A stretch of DNA of 5,322 bases from contig JALSIF010000043.1 in assembly GCA_026981635.1 (NCBI GenBank), forward strand, positions 1 through 5,322, written 5' to 3'. The stretch's first letter is position 1. Each line of letters opens with the position of its first letter. This DNA comes from JALSIF01 sp026981635 [NCBI: bacterium] (GTDB taxonomy: Bacteria > 4484-113 > JALSIF01). The notes beneath the pieces were generated by a model that saw only the letters and a list, made by a program, of their open reading frames with translations, was not told the origin of the DNA and did not search any database. Positions 59-5,322 of the stretch are shown piece by piece. Made by a program: the position numbers and the translations under genes.

Positions 59-784
59 TCAGCCCTCCGCCTGTCCCCCTTCTCCCTCGGCGTTGGGCTT
101 GAGGGCAAGCTCGGAGGGAGAGGAGCCTTCTTCGGTTCCTTCCTCTTCCTCTGCCTTTTCGTGGGAGTGGGAGAGAAAGATGGAGATCAGCACCAGCAAA
201 ACGCCGATGGAGGCCAGGCTGTCGGCCACGTTAAAGACCGGGAAATCCCACGGCGGGCGCCCGGGGAGGGGGATGAGAACGTCTATGAAGTCCACCACCA
301 CCGCCATGCGCAGGCGGTCAACGAAGTTGCCCATGGCGCCGGCCACAATGAGGATGAGCCCCCAGCCGGCGAAGCGGTCTCGGTAGGCAACCTTGTGCCA
401 GTAGATAAGTAGCAGAAGGATTAGTAGGGCACTAAACAGAGCAAGCAGGCGGGGATAGCCGGAGAAAATACTCCAGGCGGCTCCGTCGTTTAGGGCCAGC
501 TTAAAGGTGAGCCAGTCGCCCAGCAAGCGCAGAGGAGGAGCAAAGGGACGGTAGGGAAAATCTTCCATTCCAACCGAGTGGAGGGAGAAGTAGCGAAGTA
601 GGAAGCTGGGCAGGGGGCCGCTTGTACTTCCCAGATAGTAGACTGCAAGAGCCTTACTTAGCTGATCCAGAGCCAGCCCCAGGCTCACAACAACCAGCAT
701 CAGGGACCAGGGGCGGCGGGGGGAGGAGTTCTGTGCCCCCTGGCTAGATGCCCCGGCTGGCGTCAATCTCCTGCTGGGCCTCAA
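59..784 (-). CDS. lspA: Lipoprotein signal peptidase II (prolipoprotein signal peptidase)
   Basis: LspA is the inner-membrane aspartyl protease that removes the signal peptide from diacylated prolipoproteins. Conserved residues are intact: D40 (DQLSK), N99 (LNDGAAWS), GAMGNFVDR (149-157), catalytic D165 (VVDFID) and D188 (FNVADS). Four hydrophobic segments lie at about 28-50, 110-130, 138-158 and 186-206. At 241 residues it is longer than the usual 160-170: there is an N-terminal tail, about 28 extra residues between D40 and N99 compared with Pseudomonas LspA, a slightly longer loop between D165 and N185, and an acidic Glu/Gly/Ser-rich C-terminal tail from 206. The start is uncertain. TTG 784 (overlapping the upstream gene by 41 nt) or TTG 766 keeps the positive RRPW before helix 1; ATG 700 would begin inside the helix with no charged tail, so I prefer the TTG. 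No Shine-Dalgarno site is clear. It is the last visible gene of the operon. Confidence 0.95.
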   Translation of the reverse strand: MRPSRRLTPAGASSQGAQNSSPRRPWSLMLVVVSLGLALDQLSKALAVYYLGSTSGPLPSFLLRYFSLHSVGMEDFPYRPFAPPLRLLGDWLTFKLALNDGAAWSIFSGYPRLLALFSALLILLLLIYWHKVAYRDRFAGWGLILIVAGAMGNFVDRLRMAVVVDFIDVLIPLPGRPPWDFPVFNVADSLASIGVLLVLISIFLSHSHEKAEEEEGTEEGSSPSELALKPNAEGEGGQAEG

Positions 785-1325
785 AGGAGTACTTTGCCCA
801 AGGGATGGCCTTGAGCCGCTCCTTGGAGATGGGCTTGCCGGTGCGGCGGCAGAAGCCGTAGGTGCCGTCCTCTATGGCCTGGAGGGCCTCGTCAATGAGC
901 TTGAGGTTGCGCTCCAGCTGGGCCACCAGCTGCTCGTCCTTGGCCAGCTCGGTGGTCTCGGTGATCAGGTCGCTGTCGGGGTCACCGCTGTTTCGCTCGT
1001 GGAGCAGCTCTCCGGCCAGAGCCTTCTGGATCTTCTTGCGCAGACCAGTGAGCTCCTTCTGGATCTCCTCCCGCTTCTCCAAAAGTAGCTTCTTGAAGTA
1101 GTCCAGCTCCTTGTCGGAGAAGCGGGGGTGGTTGTAGCGACGCTTGGCCGACCCAGCGGTTGACTTCTTGGCGGCGGACTTGCCGGCCGCCTGCTTGGAG
1201 CCTTTTGAGTTGGTCTTGGTCTTCTTGCTGGCCAACTTCTCGTTCACCTCCGCATCCTTCTGGGCTCGCCTTCCACCGCCTCGCTTTGCTATACCCCGGC
1301 TAGAGGGAGAAAGCTTTCCTGGCAT
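744..1325 (-). CDS. TraR/DksA-like regulator, cysteine-poor zinc-finger region and basic N-terminal tail
   Basis: 193 residues from the ATG at 1323..1325; a TTG at 1344..1346 would add seven residues, and neither start has a good Shine-Dalgarno site. Numbering from the TTG: residues 8-70 are a Lys/Ala/Ser/Gly-rich basic tail, probably disordered. Residues 76-160 form the long coiled coil expected of DksA, with NSGDPDSD (119-126) near its tip in place of the E. coli acidic tip motif. The C-terminal globule has EDGTYGFCRRTGKPI (159-173), KERLKAIPWAKY (175-186). Of the four zinc cysteines (spaced C-x2-C-x17-C-x2-C in E. coli DksA) only C166 remains; the others are T169, S187 and A190, so zinc is probably not bound. 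DksA binds in the RNA polymerase secondary channel and tunes rRNA and stress promoters with ppGpp; whether this variant does so is inference. The gene overlaps tatD upstream and precedes or overlaps lspA, an arrangement also known in Chlamydiae. Confidence 0.88.
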   Translation of the reverse strand: MPGKLSPSSRGIAKRGGGRRAQKDAEVNEKLASKKTKTNSKGSKQAAGKSAAKKSTAGSAKRRYNHPRFSDKELDYFKKLLLEKREEIQKELTGLRKKIQKALAGELLHERNSGDPDSDLITETTELAKDEQLVAQLERNLKLIDEALQAIEDGTYGFCRRTGKPISKERLKAIPWAKYSFEAQQEIDASRGI

Positions 1326-2052
1326 TTGAGGCTGTTTGAGCGGCAAATTCTACCAGACTGGTCGCCCTAAGGTGGGCAACCCTTTCCGCCGTCGCCACCA
1401 GCATGGCGGGGTGGGAGGGTCTCCCCCGCCAGGGGTGGGGAGCAAGAAACGGCGCATCGGTCTCCAAAAGCACATAGGAGGGATGGAGATTCTTTGCTGC
1501 ATGTTCAATGTCCGGGTCGCCATAGGTGGCGTTGCCGGCAAAGCCGAAGTAGGCTTGGTGGGAGGTTCCCCAGGCCAAGATATCGGGGGAACCGTCAAAA
1601 CAGTGGAAGATGAAGCGAACCTCCGGGTAGCGGCTCACTACGGCCAGTACCTCGGCGGGGGCGCTTCGCTGGTGGACCACCACCGGGAGATGGCGCTCCC
1701 TAGCCAGCTCAATCTGGCCAGCAAACAGCTCCTGCTGGTAGTGGAGGGGGGTGGTCTGGTGGTGGAGGTCAATGCCGCACTCGCCCACCGCCACCGGGGA
1801 GGGTTCTTCCTCAAAAAACCCCGCCAGCTCCCGCAGAGCGGTGGGGGGATGGTGGTAGGCGGGGTGGAGTCCGGCGGTGAAGTGGATCCGGCCGGGGAAG
1901 GCGCGGGCCAGCTCGCGGGCCTTATGGCTGGTCTCCAAGTCAATGCCGATCAGGATGAGGGCGGCAAAGCCGGCCCGGAGGAGACGGGAGATGGTCTCCC
2001 GCTGGGGGGAGAAGTGGTCAAAGTAGAGGTGGCTGTGGGTGTCAATGAACAA
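1300..2052 (-). CDS. tatD: TatD family metal-dependent hydrolase (deoxyribonuclease)
   Basis: 250 residues, the usual TatD length, with all metal ligands of the amidohydrolase-type TIM barrel present: H6 and H8 (DTHSH), E91 (VGECGIDLH), H127 (VVVHQRSA), H150 (FHCFDGS) and D199 (LLETDAPFLAP). The family GLHP (61-64) and the terminal N-A-R-K-A-F are also present. TatD proteins are cytoplasmic Mg-dependent nucleases (3'-5' exonuclease on DNA/RNA in E. coli) linked to DNA repair and quality control; despite the name they are not part of Tat export. The start is TTG: the protein must begin just before FIDTHSH, and no ATG, GTG or other usable start occurs in frame upstream. There is no clear Shine-Dalgarno site; the stop of the fapA-like gene is 5 nt upstream, so re-initiation is plausible. 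The 3' end overlaps the start of the dksA-like gene. Whether this is the TatD, YcfH or YjjV type cannot be told. Confidence 0.95.
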   Translation of the reverse strand: MFIDTHSHLYFDHFSPQRETISRLLRAGFAALILIGIDLETSHKARELARAFPGRIHFTAGLHPAYHHPPTALRELAGFFEEEPSPVAVGECGIDLHHQTTPLHYQQELFAGQIELARERHLPVVVHQRSAPAEVLAVVSRYPEVRFIFHCFDGSPDILAWGTSHQAYFGFAGNATYGDPDIEHAAKNLHPSYVLLETDAPFLAPHPWRGRPSHPAMLVATAERVAHLRATSLVEFAAQTASNARKAFSL

Positions 2053-2057
2053 GGGAG

Positions 2058-3470
2058 CTATTTCTTGCGCATCGCCCGCAGGCGAACCTTGCCCTGGACC
2101 ACGTAGAGCACCACCGAGCGTAGCTCCTCAATGGGCTTAAAGATGGCTCCCTGCAGGATCACCATCACCCCGGGGTAGAGGGTACCGGAGACCTCAACGG
2201 TTGACTTGGGGGCAAAGCTGAGCAGTTTGGAGAGCTCCTCCAGTCGCTCGGCGATGCGGGCAAGCTCCTTCTCCACCACATATTTCTGGTCCTCCAGCAG
2301 GGCCTTGATCTCTCGCTGGCGGGGAGAGATGACCCGCTTCTGCTTGAGCACCTCTAGACCCTGGTTAATCCGCTCCAGCCGGTGGAGATAGTCGCTCTGG
2401 CGGTCGCAAAGCTCCTCGTACTCGGTGGAGAGGATGGGGTTTCTGCCCACCTCCACCCGGGTGAAGGTGCCCATTGGGCTGCCCAGCTGGGTGGTCTCCA
2501 GGCGGTGGTGGACCCGGGCGCTGCCCCCTACCAGCCCGGCGTTTCCCCTGACGGTGAGGCTCCCCCCCACCAGGGTGTCACAGTGGCGGAGTCCCTCCTC
2601 CACCTCTAGGTCGCCTCCCACCTGGACCTTTGCCCCATCGGCGGAACGGATGCGAGCCCGGCCACCTGCCTTAATCTCGCAGTCTCCCTTGCCGAAGACC
2701 CGGCCCTCTATCACCAGGTCACCACCCGCCTCCACCTGGGCCTTCTCCACGAAGCCACGGATGACCAGGTTGCCCCCCGCCCGCACCCGGAAGTCGGGGT
2801 TGACATTGCCGTCAATGGTCAGGTGGCCGCCGAAGTCCAGGTTGCCGGTGGTGTAGTCCACGTCGCCCTGAATGAAGATGCGATCCAGCAGGGAGAGCTG
2901 GTCACCTGACAGAACGACGTGGCCACCGCACTCGGCCACGATGGTGGTGCGGTCTTCACTGTAGCGCAGGTTCTCCCCCGGGTGGTAGCGGGGGTGGCGC
3001 ACCTTCTTTACCTTGATTCTTTTGCCGGTGACGGTAAATCCCTCCTCACCCGGGTCGGGGCTGCGCAGGTAGGCCACCACCTGACCGGGGGCGACGTTGT
3101 TGAAGCGCTTGAGGTCGCGAAAGTCCACACTGCCGTCGGGACGGGTCTTTAGCCCCTCGGCGTGCTCCTCAATGTCTACCGCCAGCACCCACTTGCCCTC
3201 GTCGGCGGGGCGCATCTCCCGCCCCCGGGCAACCACCACCGGCTGCTCATAGATCGGCTCGGCCAGGAGCTGCTCAATGGCCGGCCAATCAATCCCCTCC
3301 ACCACCCCAGCCTCCTTGAGCAAGCTTGCGATCTCCTGGGGGGAGATGGGAGGGTCCCCCTGGTGGGGAGGGTGGAGGGTGAGGCGGGCCTCCATCTGGT
3401 CGGAACTGACCGAGATGTCGGCCTGATAGGCCAGGGAGGTGGGACGGGATGGAGTCTTTGCTTCGCTCAA
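2058..3470 (-). CDS. FapA/DUF342 family beta-helix protein
   Basis: 470 residues, a normal length for the FapA (DUF342) family. The N-terminal domain (about 20-170) has family signatures: DGSVDFRDL (112-120), V-x-PGQ (126-130) and GEEGFTVTGK (141-150). Residues about 196-325 form a repetitive beta-helix with six turns starting GG-[DNHSR]-L-x-[VI] at 214, 232, 249, 269, 285 and 302, roughly every 17-18 residues. Residues about 348-416 are a predicted coiled coil, followed by a short beta region with TLYPGVMVILQGA (430-442), typical of the family C-terminus. There is no signal peptide or membrane segment, so it is likely cytoplasmic. Relatives have been linked to flagellar assembly and cell polarity, but no flagellar gene is visible here and the role in this organism is unknown. 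The TTG start has a GAGGAG site 7 nt upstream. The TAG stop lies 5 nt before tatD, implying co-transcription and probable translational coupling. Confidence 0.9.
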   Translation of the reverse strand: MSEAKTPSRPTSLAYQADISVSSDQMEARLTLHPPHQGDPPISPQEIASLLKEAGVVEGIDWPAIEQLLAEPIYEQPVVVARGREMRPADEGKWVLAVDIEEHAEGLKTRPDGSVDFRDLKRFNNVAPGQVVAYLRSPDPGEEGFTVTGKRIKVKKVRHPRYHPGENLRYSEDRTTIVAECGGHVVLSGDQLSLLDRIFIQGDVDYTTGNLDFGGHLTIDGNVNPDFRVRAGGNLVIRGFVEKAQVEAGGDLVIEGRVFGKGDCEIKAGGRARIRSADGAKVQVGGDLEVEEGLRHCDTLVGGSLTVRGNAGLVGGSARVHHRLETTQLGSPMGTFTRVEVGRNPILSTEYEELCDRQSDYLHRLERINQGLEVLKQKRVISPRQREIKALLEDQKYVVEKELARIAERLEELSKLLSFAPKSTVEVSGTLYPGVMVILQGAIFKPIEELRSVVLYVVQGKVRLRAMRKK

Positions 3471-3545: not shown

Positions 3546-5322
3546 CTAGGCCATCTCCTCCATCAGCTCTTTGGGGGTGAGGCGGAAGGCGCCCTTGACC
3601 TCCGGCCTCTCTTCAACGATGTCGCGCACGATCTGGTTCAGGCTCTCAATGTCGGTGGGGCGGGCAAAGAGGGCCTTTTGTCCCGGCGAGCGCTCCCTTC
3701 CGTCCAGCACCAGGATGCTCACCCCGCGGGCGTTGCCAAAGGGGGGAAGCTTGATCAGGCAGAAGATGTCTGCCCGGTCGGTCATCTCACGGAAGAAGTC
3801 GTGGCCCTTGACCTGCTGGAGGAACTCGTCGGTGACGAAGCAGGCCACCCTGCCCTGGGGGGTGATGTTGTTTAGGGCGTGGTCAATGTAGTTGGCCACC
3901 AGATTGGCGTCGCCCTTGAAGGCGAAGTTGCCCGCGATGAGGTCAAACTTGAGGTCGCTTACCTCCTCGCCGAAGATGCGGTCAAGCTGGGTGAAGAAGT
4001 CAAGCTGGGCAACGAACAGCTTGGGGAAGCCGGAGAGCAGGGCGACCATCTGGGTGGCCTTGGCCAGCACCGGGTCGGTCTCCAGGGAGACGAAGTTGTA
4101 GGTCAGGAAGTGGTCAACGAAGTCGTACTGGCTGAGGAAAAAACTCTCCTTGGCCTTCTCCAGCAGGGGGGCATCGGTGGCGTCCACCAGGACTATCTCG
4201 CCCTCGTCGGTCAGCACCTCTATCAGTCCATCCTCCCCCAGCGCCCAGCGGGCGTTCTCCAGCGAGTCGTAGACGTGGGAGACCAGTGAGACTGCCACCA
4301 GCCCGTCGCCGGCGGCCGGGTTGATGACCAGCTGGTTGATGGAGGGGGCAGCAAGCTGGGCCAGGTAGCGGCAGTAGTCGCGGGGGATGGGAATGCGGTA
4401 CTGGGTGTAGTTCTGGTAGTTGTGGTAGAGCAGGTCCTCCACCTTGCGCACCGAGAGGGGACCGTGGACGGTGACCTTCTCCTCGCTCCCCATGCTGGCA
4501 AGCTCAGTCAGGAAGTTGATCACCTCCAGGCGCTGGTGCTTGTTGAGGTGACGCTCGCGGGGCAGGGTCTCAATGCGGTTGAAGTTCTTCCCCCTAAGCT
4601 CCTCCCGCTCAAGCCCCAGCACCGCCCGGCGATCGCTGGGGGGCTGCTCCCCCTCGCCCTCCTTTTCCAGCCGCTCCTTTACCTTCTTCTTGAGTTTCAT
4701 CTTGAGGGGGGACTCGGCCTCGCGCTTGGCCTTGCCCTTTCCCTTCTTGGTCTGCTGTTCGCGGGTCCCCTCAATGAATGCCTGGGCAAACTCCTGTTCC
4801 AAGGTGGGGGAGACACCCTTCTTGGGGGTGATGTCAAAGCCGGCGATGCGCGCCTTCTCCTGCCTGGCCTCCTCGGCCGCCTGCTGGCGCTCGGTCAGGT
4901 CCCAAAGCTTCCTCACCCGGGTGAAACGGCTGTCCATCTCGGGGGTGAAGATGACCAGCTCCCGGTCCAGCTCGGGGTTCTTCTCCAGCACCCGGCGAAG
5001 GATCTCCTTCTCATTCAGGGGGCGACCGGCCTCCTTGAGTACCTGGTAGGCCTGGGGATTTACATCAATCCACTCCTTTCTTCCCCAGCGGCCCTTGTGA
5101 CGGCGCAGTCCCTCCACCTTGGCGGGGTCCAGGGCGACCTGGGAGTACTTGATGCCCAGCTTCTTGGCCACCGCCCGCTTTAGATCGCGCTCGGTGACGA
5201 AGCGGCGGAGCTCATCAATCGCCTCCATCACCACCTGGTGTTCGGGGAGCTTGGCCTTGCTTATCCGCCAGAGCTTCTGCTTCTTGCCCTCTCTGGTGGA
5301 GGTGCGACCGGAGAAGTAGTCG
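3546..5322 (-). CDS. Partial: tandem winged-helix (HARE-HTH-like) protein with degenerate N6-adenine methyltransferase domain
   Basis: The frame is open to the right window edge. A GTG at 5232..5234 could give 562 residues, but it has no Shine-Dalgarno site and about 29 further in-frame codons precede it, so the true start probably lies outside. Numbering from that GTG: residues 1-57 and 59-114 each look like a winged helix ending in an aromatic wing (KGRWGRKEW; MDSRFTRVRKLWDL), as in the HARE-HTH domain of RNA polymerase delta subunit. The upstream codons end in a similar KLWRIS. Residues 117-225 are a charged Lys/Glu-rich linker. Residues about 225-562 follow the HsdM-type N6 methyltransferase fold: motif I NPAAGDG (305-311), an acidic residue after the next strand (D351), then DLIAGNFAF (431-439) where active enzymes have NPPF/NPPY, then the family's LPPFG and SILVLDG (496-512). 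Loss of NPPF/Y suggests no adenine methylation. I infer a DNA-binding or scaffold role; function is unknown. The domain calls are from pattern recognition. Confidence 0.82.
   Translation of the reverse strand, partial: DYFSGRTSTREGKKQKLWRISKAKLPEHQVVMEAIDELRRFVTERDLKRAVAKKLGIKYSQVALDPAKVEGLRRHKGRWGRKEWIDVNPQAYQVLKEAGRPLNEKEILRRVLEKNPELDRELVIFTPEMDSRFTRVRKLWDLTERQQAAEEARQEKARIAGFDITPKKGVSPTLEQEFAQAFIEGTREQQTKKGKGKAKREAESPLKMKLKKKVKERLEKEGEGEQPPSDRRAVLGLEREELRGKNFNRIETLPRERHLNKHQRLEVINFLTELASMGSEEKVTVHGPLSVRKVEDLLYHNYQNYTQYRIPIPRDYCRYLAQLAAPSINQLVINPAAGDGLVAVSLVSHVYDSLENARWALGEDGLIEVLTDEGEIVLVDATDAPLLEKAKESFFLSQYDFVDHFLTYNFVSLETDPVLAKATQMVALLSGFPKLFVAQLDFFTQLDRIFGEEVSDLKFDLIAGNFAFKGDANLVANYIDHALNNITPQGRVACFVTDEFLQQVKGHDFFREMTDRADIFCLIKLPPFGNARGVSILVLDGRERSPGQKALFARPTDIESLNQIVRDIVEERPEVKGAFRLTPKELMEEMA

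What the first reader, a model, noticed from the sequence alone, without database searches (positions are those of the whole stretch)
3546..5322. Fusion of tandem winged helices to a methyltransferase-like domain, outside any obvious defence locus
Winged-helix units resembling HARE-HTH, a long charged linker and an HsdM-type N6 methyltransferase fold occur in one polypeptide. HARE-HTH domains have been proposed to link to DNA modification and occur in restriction-modification proteins and RNA polymerase delta. Here no restriction, helicase or specificity subunit is visible; downstream genes are housekeeping. This suggests a chromosomal DNA-binding or chromatin-like role rather than defence. 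The upstream neighbourhood is not visible, so a defence partner there cannot be excluded.
Basis: partly seen in the sequence, partly recalled or inferred. Interest (0 to 1): 0.7.

Follow-up and report, generated by a model that had tools for sequence, protein, structure and literature searches.

The report
Winged-helix protein with broken methyltransferase
A little-known bacterial lineage keeps, in every genome looked at, one protein that joins three DNA-binding-type winged helices to a DNA-methyltransferase fold whose catalytic signature is gone, which suggests a former DNA-modifying enzyme reused as a chromosomal regulator.

Summary
The ORF at 3546-5321 (-) is cut by the contig end. Nine full-length relatives (647-674 aa) show three, not two, winged helices, a linker, then an HsdM-like N6-methyltransferase fold. 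AlphaFold2 of a relative's winged-helix block gives pLDDT 88; single units resemble RNA polymerase delta among other winged helices. The window's C-terminal model matches HsdM at Z 16.6. Catalytic motif NPP[FY] is N-x-x-F in 10 of 10 family members; the SAM-loop G-x-G is lost in 9 of 10, kept in the window copy. By contrast 18 of 20 N6_Mtase loci of the phylum hold NPP[YFW]. The gene occurs once in 10 of 10 genomes of its phylum; in 9 of 10 loci one or more of fapA, tatD, dksA, lspA follow. Upstream genes vary; none of 18 scanned is a restriction gene. In other phyla the array carries other C-termini, one of them MIT_C near a DNA methylase. I read it as a non-catalytic, chromosomal DNA- or transcription-associated regulator. 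DNA binding, loss of catalysis and function are inferred, not shown.

The parts
5250..5321 (-). Remnant of winged helix 1 (residues 1-24); the rest and the start codon lie beyond the contig end
   Evidence: Aligned to full-length relatives; window is the whole contig; coordinates checked
5070..5246 (-). Winged helix 2 (residues 26-84)
   Evidence: AlphaFold2 of relative L022; repeat of WH3; alignment
4896..5069 (-). Winged helix 3 (residues 85-142) with invariant wing residues D130 R132 F133 R137 K138 W140; HARE-HTH Pfam match (sub-threshold) and weak RNA polymerase delta match
4560..4895 (-). Linker (residues 143-254), basic in this copy, with invariant L174, E175, F178, A181 and L206
3549..4559 (-). 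HsdM-like N6-methyltransferase fold (residues 255-591), acidic; no target-recognition domain seen after the core
4302..4322 (-). Motif I NPAAGDG (SAM loop; G-x-G kept here, lost in the 9 relatives)
3918..3929 (-). Motif IV position: NFAF in place of NPP[FY]
2058..3470 (-). fapA-like gene, next gene on the same strand
   Evidence: Pfam FapA 1.5e-55
1300..2052 (-). tatD-like nuclease gene
   Evidence: Pfam TatD_DNase 1.1e-59
744..1346 (-). dksA/traR-like gene
   Evidence: Pfam zf-dskA_traR 1.3e-9
59..784 (-). lspA-like signal peptidase II gene
   Evidence: Pfam Peptidase_A8 2.3e-29

Best explanation
A single-copy chromosomal protein of one bacterial phylum: three N-terminal winged helices of the HARE-HTH/RNA polymerase delta type, a flexible linker, and an HsdM-like methyltransferase fold that has lost its catalytic signature. 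Proposed mechanism: the winged helices hold DNA, or DNA at the transcription machinery; the acidic pseudo-methyltransferase domain does not methylate but serves as a dimerisation, docking or ligand-sensing part. The whole acts as a transcriptional or nucleoid regulator rather than as restriction-modification. Shown by computation: architecture, folds, motif changes, phylum-wide presence, gene order. Inferred: DNA binding, loss of catalysis, regulatory role.
For: Three winged helices at pLDDT 87.6 in relative L022; delta NTD 2krc Foldseek probability 1.00 though E 0.035, delta in 9a6y Z 7.5, rmsd 3.3, 76 aligned. HsdM-type folds Z 15-16.6. Motif IV is N[FLIY][ATI]F in 10 of 10, both prolines lost; motif I first glycine lost in 9 of 10. 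Control: NPP[YFW] occurs in 18 of 20 N6_Mtase loci fetched from the same phylum (pattern anywhere in the larger ORFs). Three further proteins with array plus methyltransferase (G244 DPPV, G289 NPPS, G249 HPPS) lack the aromatic residue. One copy in 10 of 10 genomes of the phylum. dN/dS 0.14 and 0.08 for the two same-genus pairs, the methyltransferase part 0.14 and 0.06. Two of 10 genomes, G000 and G008, have no N6_Mtase match at E 0.001 or better, so it is not an obligate partner of one. Nearest upstream genes are panB/C/D, RDD/Yip1/efflux, acylphosphatase/beta-lactamase-fold, or prfB/lnt types.
Against: No DNA-binding or expression data. The winged-helix block is near neutral in 3 of 10 rows (charge 0 to +2), and tandem winged helices also bind RNA (SelB) or protein (UFL1/DDRGK1, the only Foldseek hit with E at or under 0.001). 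Many winged helices match as well as delta. The methyltransferase model is only moderate (pLDDT 72; the other four models 46-62). N465, F468, E/D414 and D441 are kept in 10 of 10, so residual SAM or base binding is possible. Pocket windows are not clearly more conserved than the rest of the domain (permutation 0.059), so ligand sensing has no independent support. Absence of N6_Mtase in two genomes is from genomes 84-85% complete, and other DNA methylase families were not searched.
Confidence: 0.55

Rival explanations
1. It is a transcription factor that docks on RNA polymerase as delta does, through a HARE-HTH-type winged helix.
For: Delta is the best PDB sequence match of the winged-helix profile, though weak (2krc E 0.4, WH3), and a fold match. 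The only two HARE-HTH matches found in the phylum are the family itself, so no separate delta was seen. A DksA-type gene lies in the same run in 5 of 10 loci.
Against: Delta has one such domain and an acidic disordered tail (recalled); forkhead and other winged helices match as well as delta.
Confidence: 0.15
2. It is an active orphan adenine methyltransferase (like CamA) with winged helices as its target reader, using an unusual N-x-x-F motif IV.
For: N465 and F468 invariant; SAM-site acids kept; the window copy keeps G-x-G in motif I; CamA among the fold matches, Z 15.7.
Against: Both motif IV prolines lost in 10 of 10 and the motif I glycine in 9 of 10, while 18 of 20 N6_Mtase loci in the phylum hold NPP[YFW]. 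No target-recognition domain is seen after the core.
Confidence: 0.12
3. It is a defence protein, a modification-sensing array with a methyltransferase-like part, whose partners lie elsewhere.
For: PADLOC Mad2 match E 3.4e-11 on the C-terminal half. The same array occurs in G289 with MIT_C (Pfam 6.6e-51) about 1.9 kb from an N6_N4_Mtase ORF with a sub-threshold DUF1156 match. HARE-HTH domains are proposed modified-DNA readers (passages in PMC10853773).
Against: Present in 10 of 10 genomes and grouped by family in the gene tree, unlike the patchy spread usual for defence genes. No match in phage or plasmid records and none confirmed in a pattern scan of viral contigs. No PADLOC match in 9 of 10 neighbours tested; the tenth is a weak HD-domain match to Cas3 about 2.6 kb upstream in one genome.
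Confidence: 0.1
4. The winged-helix array binds RNA or a protein partner instead of DNA, as in SelB or UFL1, and the protein works in translation or assembly.
For: The top tandem-array Foldseek hits include UFL1/DDRGK1, SelB, Egalitarian-BicD and Dcc1 entries; near-neutral charge in three rows.
Against: These whole-array matches have TM-scores mostly of 0.2-0.3 and rmsd mostly over 12, a loose likeness only. WH3 has an invariant basic wing (R132, R137, K138).
Confidence: 0.08

Closest known systems
HsdM and related gamma-type N6-adenine methyltransferases (Pfam N6_Mtase; 5ybb, 3ufb, 2okc, CamA)
   Same: Fold over the C-terminal domain (Z 15-16.6); positions of motifs X, I, III and IV alignable
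   Different: Motif IV NPP[FY] gone in 10 of 10, motif I glycine gone in 9 of 10; no HsdS, HsdR or target-recognition domain seen; three winged helices in front
HARE-HTH domain (PF05066), including the RNA polymerase delta N-terminal domain
   Same: Sub-threshold Pfam match; 2krc as fold match and weak sequence match
   Different: Three in tandem, fused to a methyltransferase-like domain; below the Pfam cut-off in the window copy
Mad2 of the MADS defence system (PADLOC PDLC04134)
   Same: Best PADLOC match to the C-terminal half, E 3.4e-11
   Different: No MADS partner matched among the 10 neighbours tested; phylum-wide presence with a family-wise gene tree
Pseudo-methyltransferases such as METTL14, DNMT3L and the mitochondrial transcription factor mtTFB (recalled, not tested)
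   Same: Methyltransferase fold reused without, or apart from, catalysis
   Different: Different methyltransferase families and domain arrangement

Membership tests
HARE-HTH (PF05066) | Pfam curated score for the domain | tested here: not met
   Window copy 19.4-21.8 bits against 25.9; one relative (G009) reaches 27.6 with its neighbours in the frame
HARE-HTH (PF05066) | Winged-helix fold like the delta N-terminal domain | tested here: met
   2krc Foldseek probability 1.00, E 0.035, rmsd 3.3 over 72 columns; VIA Z 6.8-7.5 to delta entries, tied with other winged helices
HARE-HTH (PF05066) | Extra helix inserted in the HTH (as stated in a passage of PMC11037411) | tested here: inconclusive
   Helices H14-25, H30-40 and H47-61 in WH1, fewer listed in WH2 and WH3; not superposed residue by residue
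N6-adenine DNA methyltransferase (HsdM type) | Class I methyltransferase fold of the HsdM kind | tested here: met
   Z 16.6 to 5ybb and 3ufb
N6-adenine DNA methyltransferase (HsdM type) | Catalytic motif IV [ND]PP[YFW] | tested here: not met
   N[FLIY][ATI]F in 10 of 10
N6-adenine DNA methyltransferase (HsdM type) | SAM-binding motif I with G-x-G | tested here: inconclusive
   Kept in the window copy, lost in 9 of 9 relatives
N6-adenine DNA methyltransferase (HsdM type) | Methylates adenine in DNA | not testable with these tools
   Needs an enzyme assay or methylation-aware reads
Type I restriction-modification system | Neighbouring specificity and restriction subunits | tested here: not met
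   None in the window or among 20 neighbours of five relatives scanned with Pfam, 18 of them upstream; other ORFs of those loci were not scanned, and the window's upstream side is off the contig
MADS defence system | Mad2 together with its other Mad proteins | tested here: inconclusive
   Mad2-type match; no mad match in 10 neighbours tested from 6 loci; not every neighbour was tested
RNA polymerase delta subunit | One HARE-HTH domain followed by an acidic disordered tail (recalled) | tested here: not met
   Three winged helices and a folded, acidic C-terminal domain

The most novel reading that the evidence does not exclude
A phylum-specific core regulator that turned an HsdM-type methyltransferase into a SAM- or nucleotide-responsive, non-catalytic switch on an array of delta-like winged helices. 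It would be one branch of a wider, unnamed class of tandem winged-helix proteins that swap C-terminal effectors between phyla: pseudo-methyltransferase, MIT_C, and unassigned domains.
Probability: 0.12. Interest if true: 0.75.

Novelty: new variant of a known kind. Interest (0 to 1): 0.5.

Why it matters
If right, it is a bacterial case of a DNA-modifying enzyme fold retired from catalysis and kept throughout a phylum as a regulator, parallel to the pseudo-methyltransferases known from eukaryotes (recalled). It would also show that winged helices of the kind proposed to read modified DNA are used as multi-domain arrays with exchangeable effectors, inside and outside defence. The question is directly testable with one purified protein.

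Tried and rejected
Single-sequence scan of genome contigs found nothing; the alignment scan found 8 named records. phmmer against the PDB with the window protein: no hit. NCBIfam: no real match (one spurious E 0.056). PHROGs: none for two proteins. Phage and plasmid records: no tblastn match; viral contigs: 24 stretches matched a pattern, none confirmed. A mobile origin was therefore set aside. Comparing A1 with itself told nothing.

Tested and not supported: that the methyltransferase pocket is specially conserved (permutation fraction 0.059). That WH1 is a sequence repeat of WH2 or WH3: hhalign gave probabilities of 0.9% and 16.8% only (the truncated window row was left out of WH1). That the C-terminus of G090/G231 or G085/G227 is a methyltransferase: hhalign gave no such match above 0.7% (the truncated window row was left out of the profile, 9 of 10 rows used). 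The CFTR_R Pfam match (E 0.07) was taken as a composition effect.

Phylum searches around G249 and G244 (2 and 4 genomes; matches in 1 and 2) were too small to say whether the protein is core there; in the latter two of four genomes lack it. Outside the window's phylum, 13 of 279 genomes matched the profile; 6 matched the winged-helix part and 7 only a short methyltransferase stretch. The 7 were dropped from the family as ordinary methyltransferase likeness.

Literature (open-licence PMC only): no paper on tandem winged helices fused to an HsdM-like pseudo-methyltransferase among those listed (20 of 51 listed; 7 of 7; 0; 1; 0; 8 of 136). The main HARE-HTH paper (PMC3272235) is not held, so it may describe methylase fusions that I could not check. 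A search for MADS papers gave nothing that I used.

Full report
What is there. The window is one whole contig (G000:C43, 5,322 bases) of a genome of 1.75 Mb in 317 contigs, 85% complete. On the minus strand a frame runs from the contig end (5321) to a stop at 3546, 591 codons, without a seen start. Downstream on the same strand lie fapA, tatD, dksA/traR and lspA homologues.

Relatives. The window protein finds one relative in each of the nine other genomes held of its phylum and in none of 30 genomes outside it. A profile confirms 10 of 10 in the phylum (nine full-length, the window's cut by the contig end; G004 also has a short match to an ordinary methyltransferase). Eight relatives have named records, all metagenome-assembled; one is Planctomycetales bacterium 4484_113, another is labelled UBP7 by its submitter. 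A review passage lists GTDB phylum 4484-113 as Candidatus Niteriota, 12 genomes of 1.54-4.11 Mb, and UBP7 as another phylum with genomes of 0.83-1.39 Mb (PMC11382960, passages seen). The ten genomes here span 1.5-4.0 Mb, so I take 4484-113 as the phylum; that is inference from a name and sizes.

Anatomy. Relatives are 647-674 aa and begin with a winged helix that the window copy lacks. AlphaFold2 on the N-terminal 213 residues of L022, with an alignment of nine rows, gives three winged helices at pLDDT 87.6. Foldseek finds the delta N-terminal domain (2krc, probability 1.00, E 0.035) and forkhead domains for single units, and UFL1/DDRGK1, SelB, Egalitarian-BicD and Dcc1 entries for the array, the latter with low TM-scores. 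VIA-align gives Z up to 7.6, with delta at 7.5 tied with many other winged helices; fold alone does not single out delta. By sequence, WH2 and WH3 are repeats of each other, WH3 matches Pfam HARE-HTH below cut-off (5 of 10 members at E up to 0.1), and delta is the best, though weak, PDB match (E 0.4).

The window's C-terminal 352 residues were modelled at pLDDT 72, the other four models being lower at 46-62. The match to HsdM and kin is clear: 5ybb Z 16.6, 3ufb 16.6, 2okc 16.5, CamA 15.7; Foldseek agrees (2okc E 3.2e-7). A profile search of PDB sequences finds M.TaqI at E 1.1e-4, over a stretch after motif IV.

Catalytic residues. An alignment with an HsdM of the same phylum (G007) and two other N6 methyltransferases (G004, G079) places the motifs. 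Motif IV, NPPF in those three, is NFAF in the window and N[FLIY][ATI]F in 10 of 10; both prolines are gone, N and F are kept. Motif I, DPACGSG or DFACGSG in those three, is NPAAGDG in the window; the first glycine is lost in the nine relatives (NPAAQAG, NPAMQVG, HP[AS]C[MLF]EG). The acid at the end of strand 2 (E in 9, D in 1) and D441 are kept in 10 of 10. As a control, Pfam N6_Mtase gave 27 matches in 8 of 10 genomes of the phylum, of which 20 came as loci. Of these 20 loci, 18 hold NPP[YFW]. L094 and L095 do not (L095 lies in a 202-aa frame), and L099 and L105 appear to be the same ORF. The pattern was sought anywhere in the larger ORFs, not by position. That these changes end catalysis is inference from general knowledge of N6 methyltransferases.

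Neighbourhood. Counting the window, fapA follows in 6 of 10 loci, tatD in 8, dksA and lspA in 5; at least one of them follows in 9 of 10 and all four in 3. L017 ends shortly after fapA, L019 shares none, and in L015 tatD is on the other strand. Upstream genes differ between groups: panB/C/D (L013, L014), RDD, Yip1-like and outer-membrane efflux genes (L015, L017), acylphosphatase and a beta-lactamase-fold gene (L016, L018), release factor, lnt and histidine phosphatase (L020, L021). Of each pair one locus was scanned with Pfam and the other assigned by shared clusters. Of the 18 upstream ORFs scanned none is a restriction or helicase gene; several gave no Pfam match, and further ORFs on these loci were not scanned. 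Ten neighbours from six loci were put to PADLOC: nine gave nothing, and L013:5342-6235 gave a weak Cas3-HD match, E 1.4e-5, which may be any HD hydrolase. The Mad2 match of the protein itself (E 3.4e-11 window, 2.5e-10 L022, 2.9e-6 L027, none for L025) shows the nearest defence-type methyltransferase, not a MADS system.

Evolution. Families f2, f3 and f4 each form a supported group in the gene tree; the window row is a long branch (1.42). The two same-genus pairs give dN/dS 0.14 and 0.08 overall, and 0.14 and 0.06 for the methyltransferase part. The domain is therefore kept by selection although its catalytic signature is gone. Two of 10 genomes (G000, G008) show no N6_Mtase match, so the protein does not seem to need such a partner, within the limit of genomes 84-85% complete and of this one Pfam family.

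Wider family. Outside the phylum the profile hits 13 of 279 genomes, 6 of them over the winged helices. G244 and its relative G289 are collinear with the family over 600 columns (hhalign 99.8%), with motif IV DPPV and NPPS and Pfam N6_Mtase at 2.6e-9 and 3.3e-13. G249 matches in both halves (96.9% and 96.7%), with HPPS and N6_Mtase at 1.6e-9. G090/G231, G085/G227 and a second G289 protein share only the winged-helix block (97.1-98.9%). That second G289 protein ends in MIT_C (6.6e-51), and an N6_N4_Mtase ORF lies about 1.9 kb away. The array is thus a recurring module with exchangeable C-termini.

Reading. The best-supported account is a non-catalytic, chromosomally encoded regulator that uses winged helices to hold nucleic acid, most likely DNA, with the retired methyltransferase as a structural or sensing part. 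The acidic C-terminal domain (net -3 to -21 in 10 of 10) makes it less likely to grip DNA alone, though the HsdM of G007 is acidic too (-14). Delta-like docking on RNA polymerase, an active orphan enzyme, a dispersed defence role and RNA binding remain as rivals, in about that order.

Literature seen. Passages of PMC11037411 (winged helices and HARE-HTH as proposed readers of modified DNA), PMC12839542, PMC10853773 and PMC11382960. Search listings. The HARE-HTH paper of 2012 was not available. METTL14, DNMT3L, mtTFB and the domain layout of delta are recalled.

Noticed in passing
744-1346 (-): The window's dksA/traR ORF carries a Lys/Ala/Ser-rich N-terminal stretch of about 70 residues, like a histone H1 tail, and has one cysteine where the dksA genes of L013, L014, L020 and L021 have four in the zinc-finger region and no such Lys-rich tail.
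   Followed up: partly
L109:5228-6751 (-): A G289 protein joins the same triple winged-helix array to an MIT_C phospholipase-D-like domain; an N6_N4_Mtase ORF (with a sub-threshold DUF1156 match) lies about 1.9 kb away.
   Followed up: partly
L058:7774-10539 (-), L059:9464-12082 (+): Two proteins of 921 and 872 aa with the winged-helix array and a similar-looking C-terminal region without a Pfam match; L059 matches the Rok winged-helix model at 5.4e-7.
   Followed up: no
1336-2106 (+): A 256-aa open frame antisense to tatD, probably a by-product of 63% G+C.
   Followed up: no
2058-3470 (-): A FapA-type gene follows the protein in 6 of 10 loci, the window included; whether these bacteria have flagella was not examined.
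   Followed up: no
G003 genome: G003 has 13 N6_Mtase matches against 0-3 in the other nine genomes of the phylum, several in clusters.
   Followed up: no
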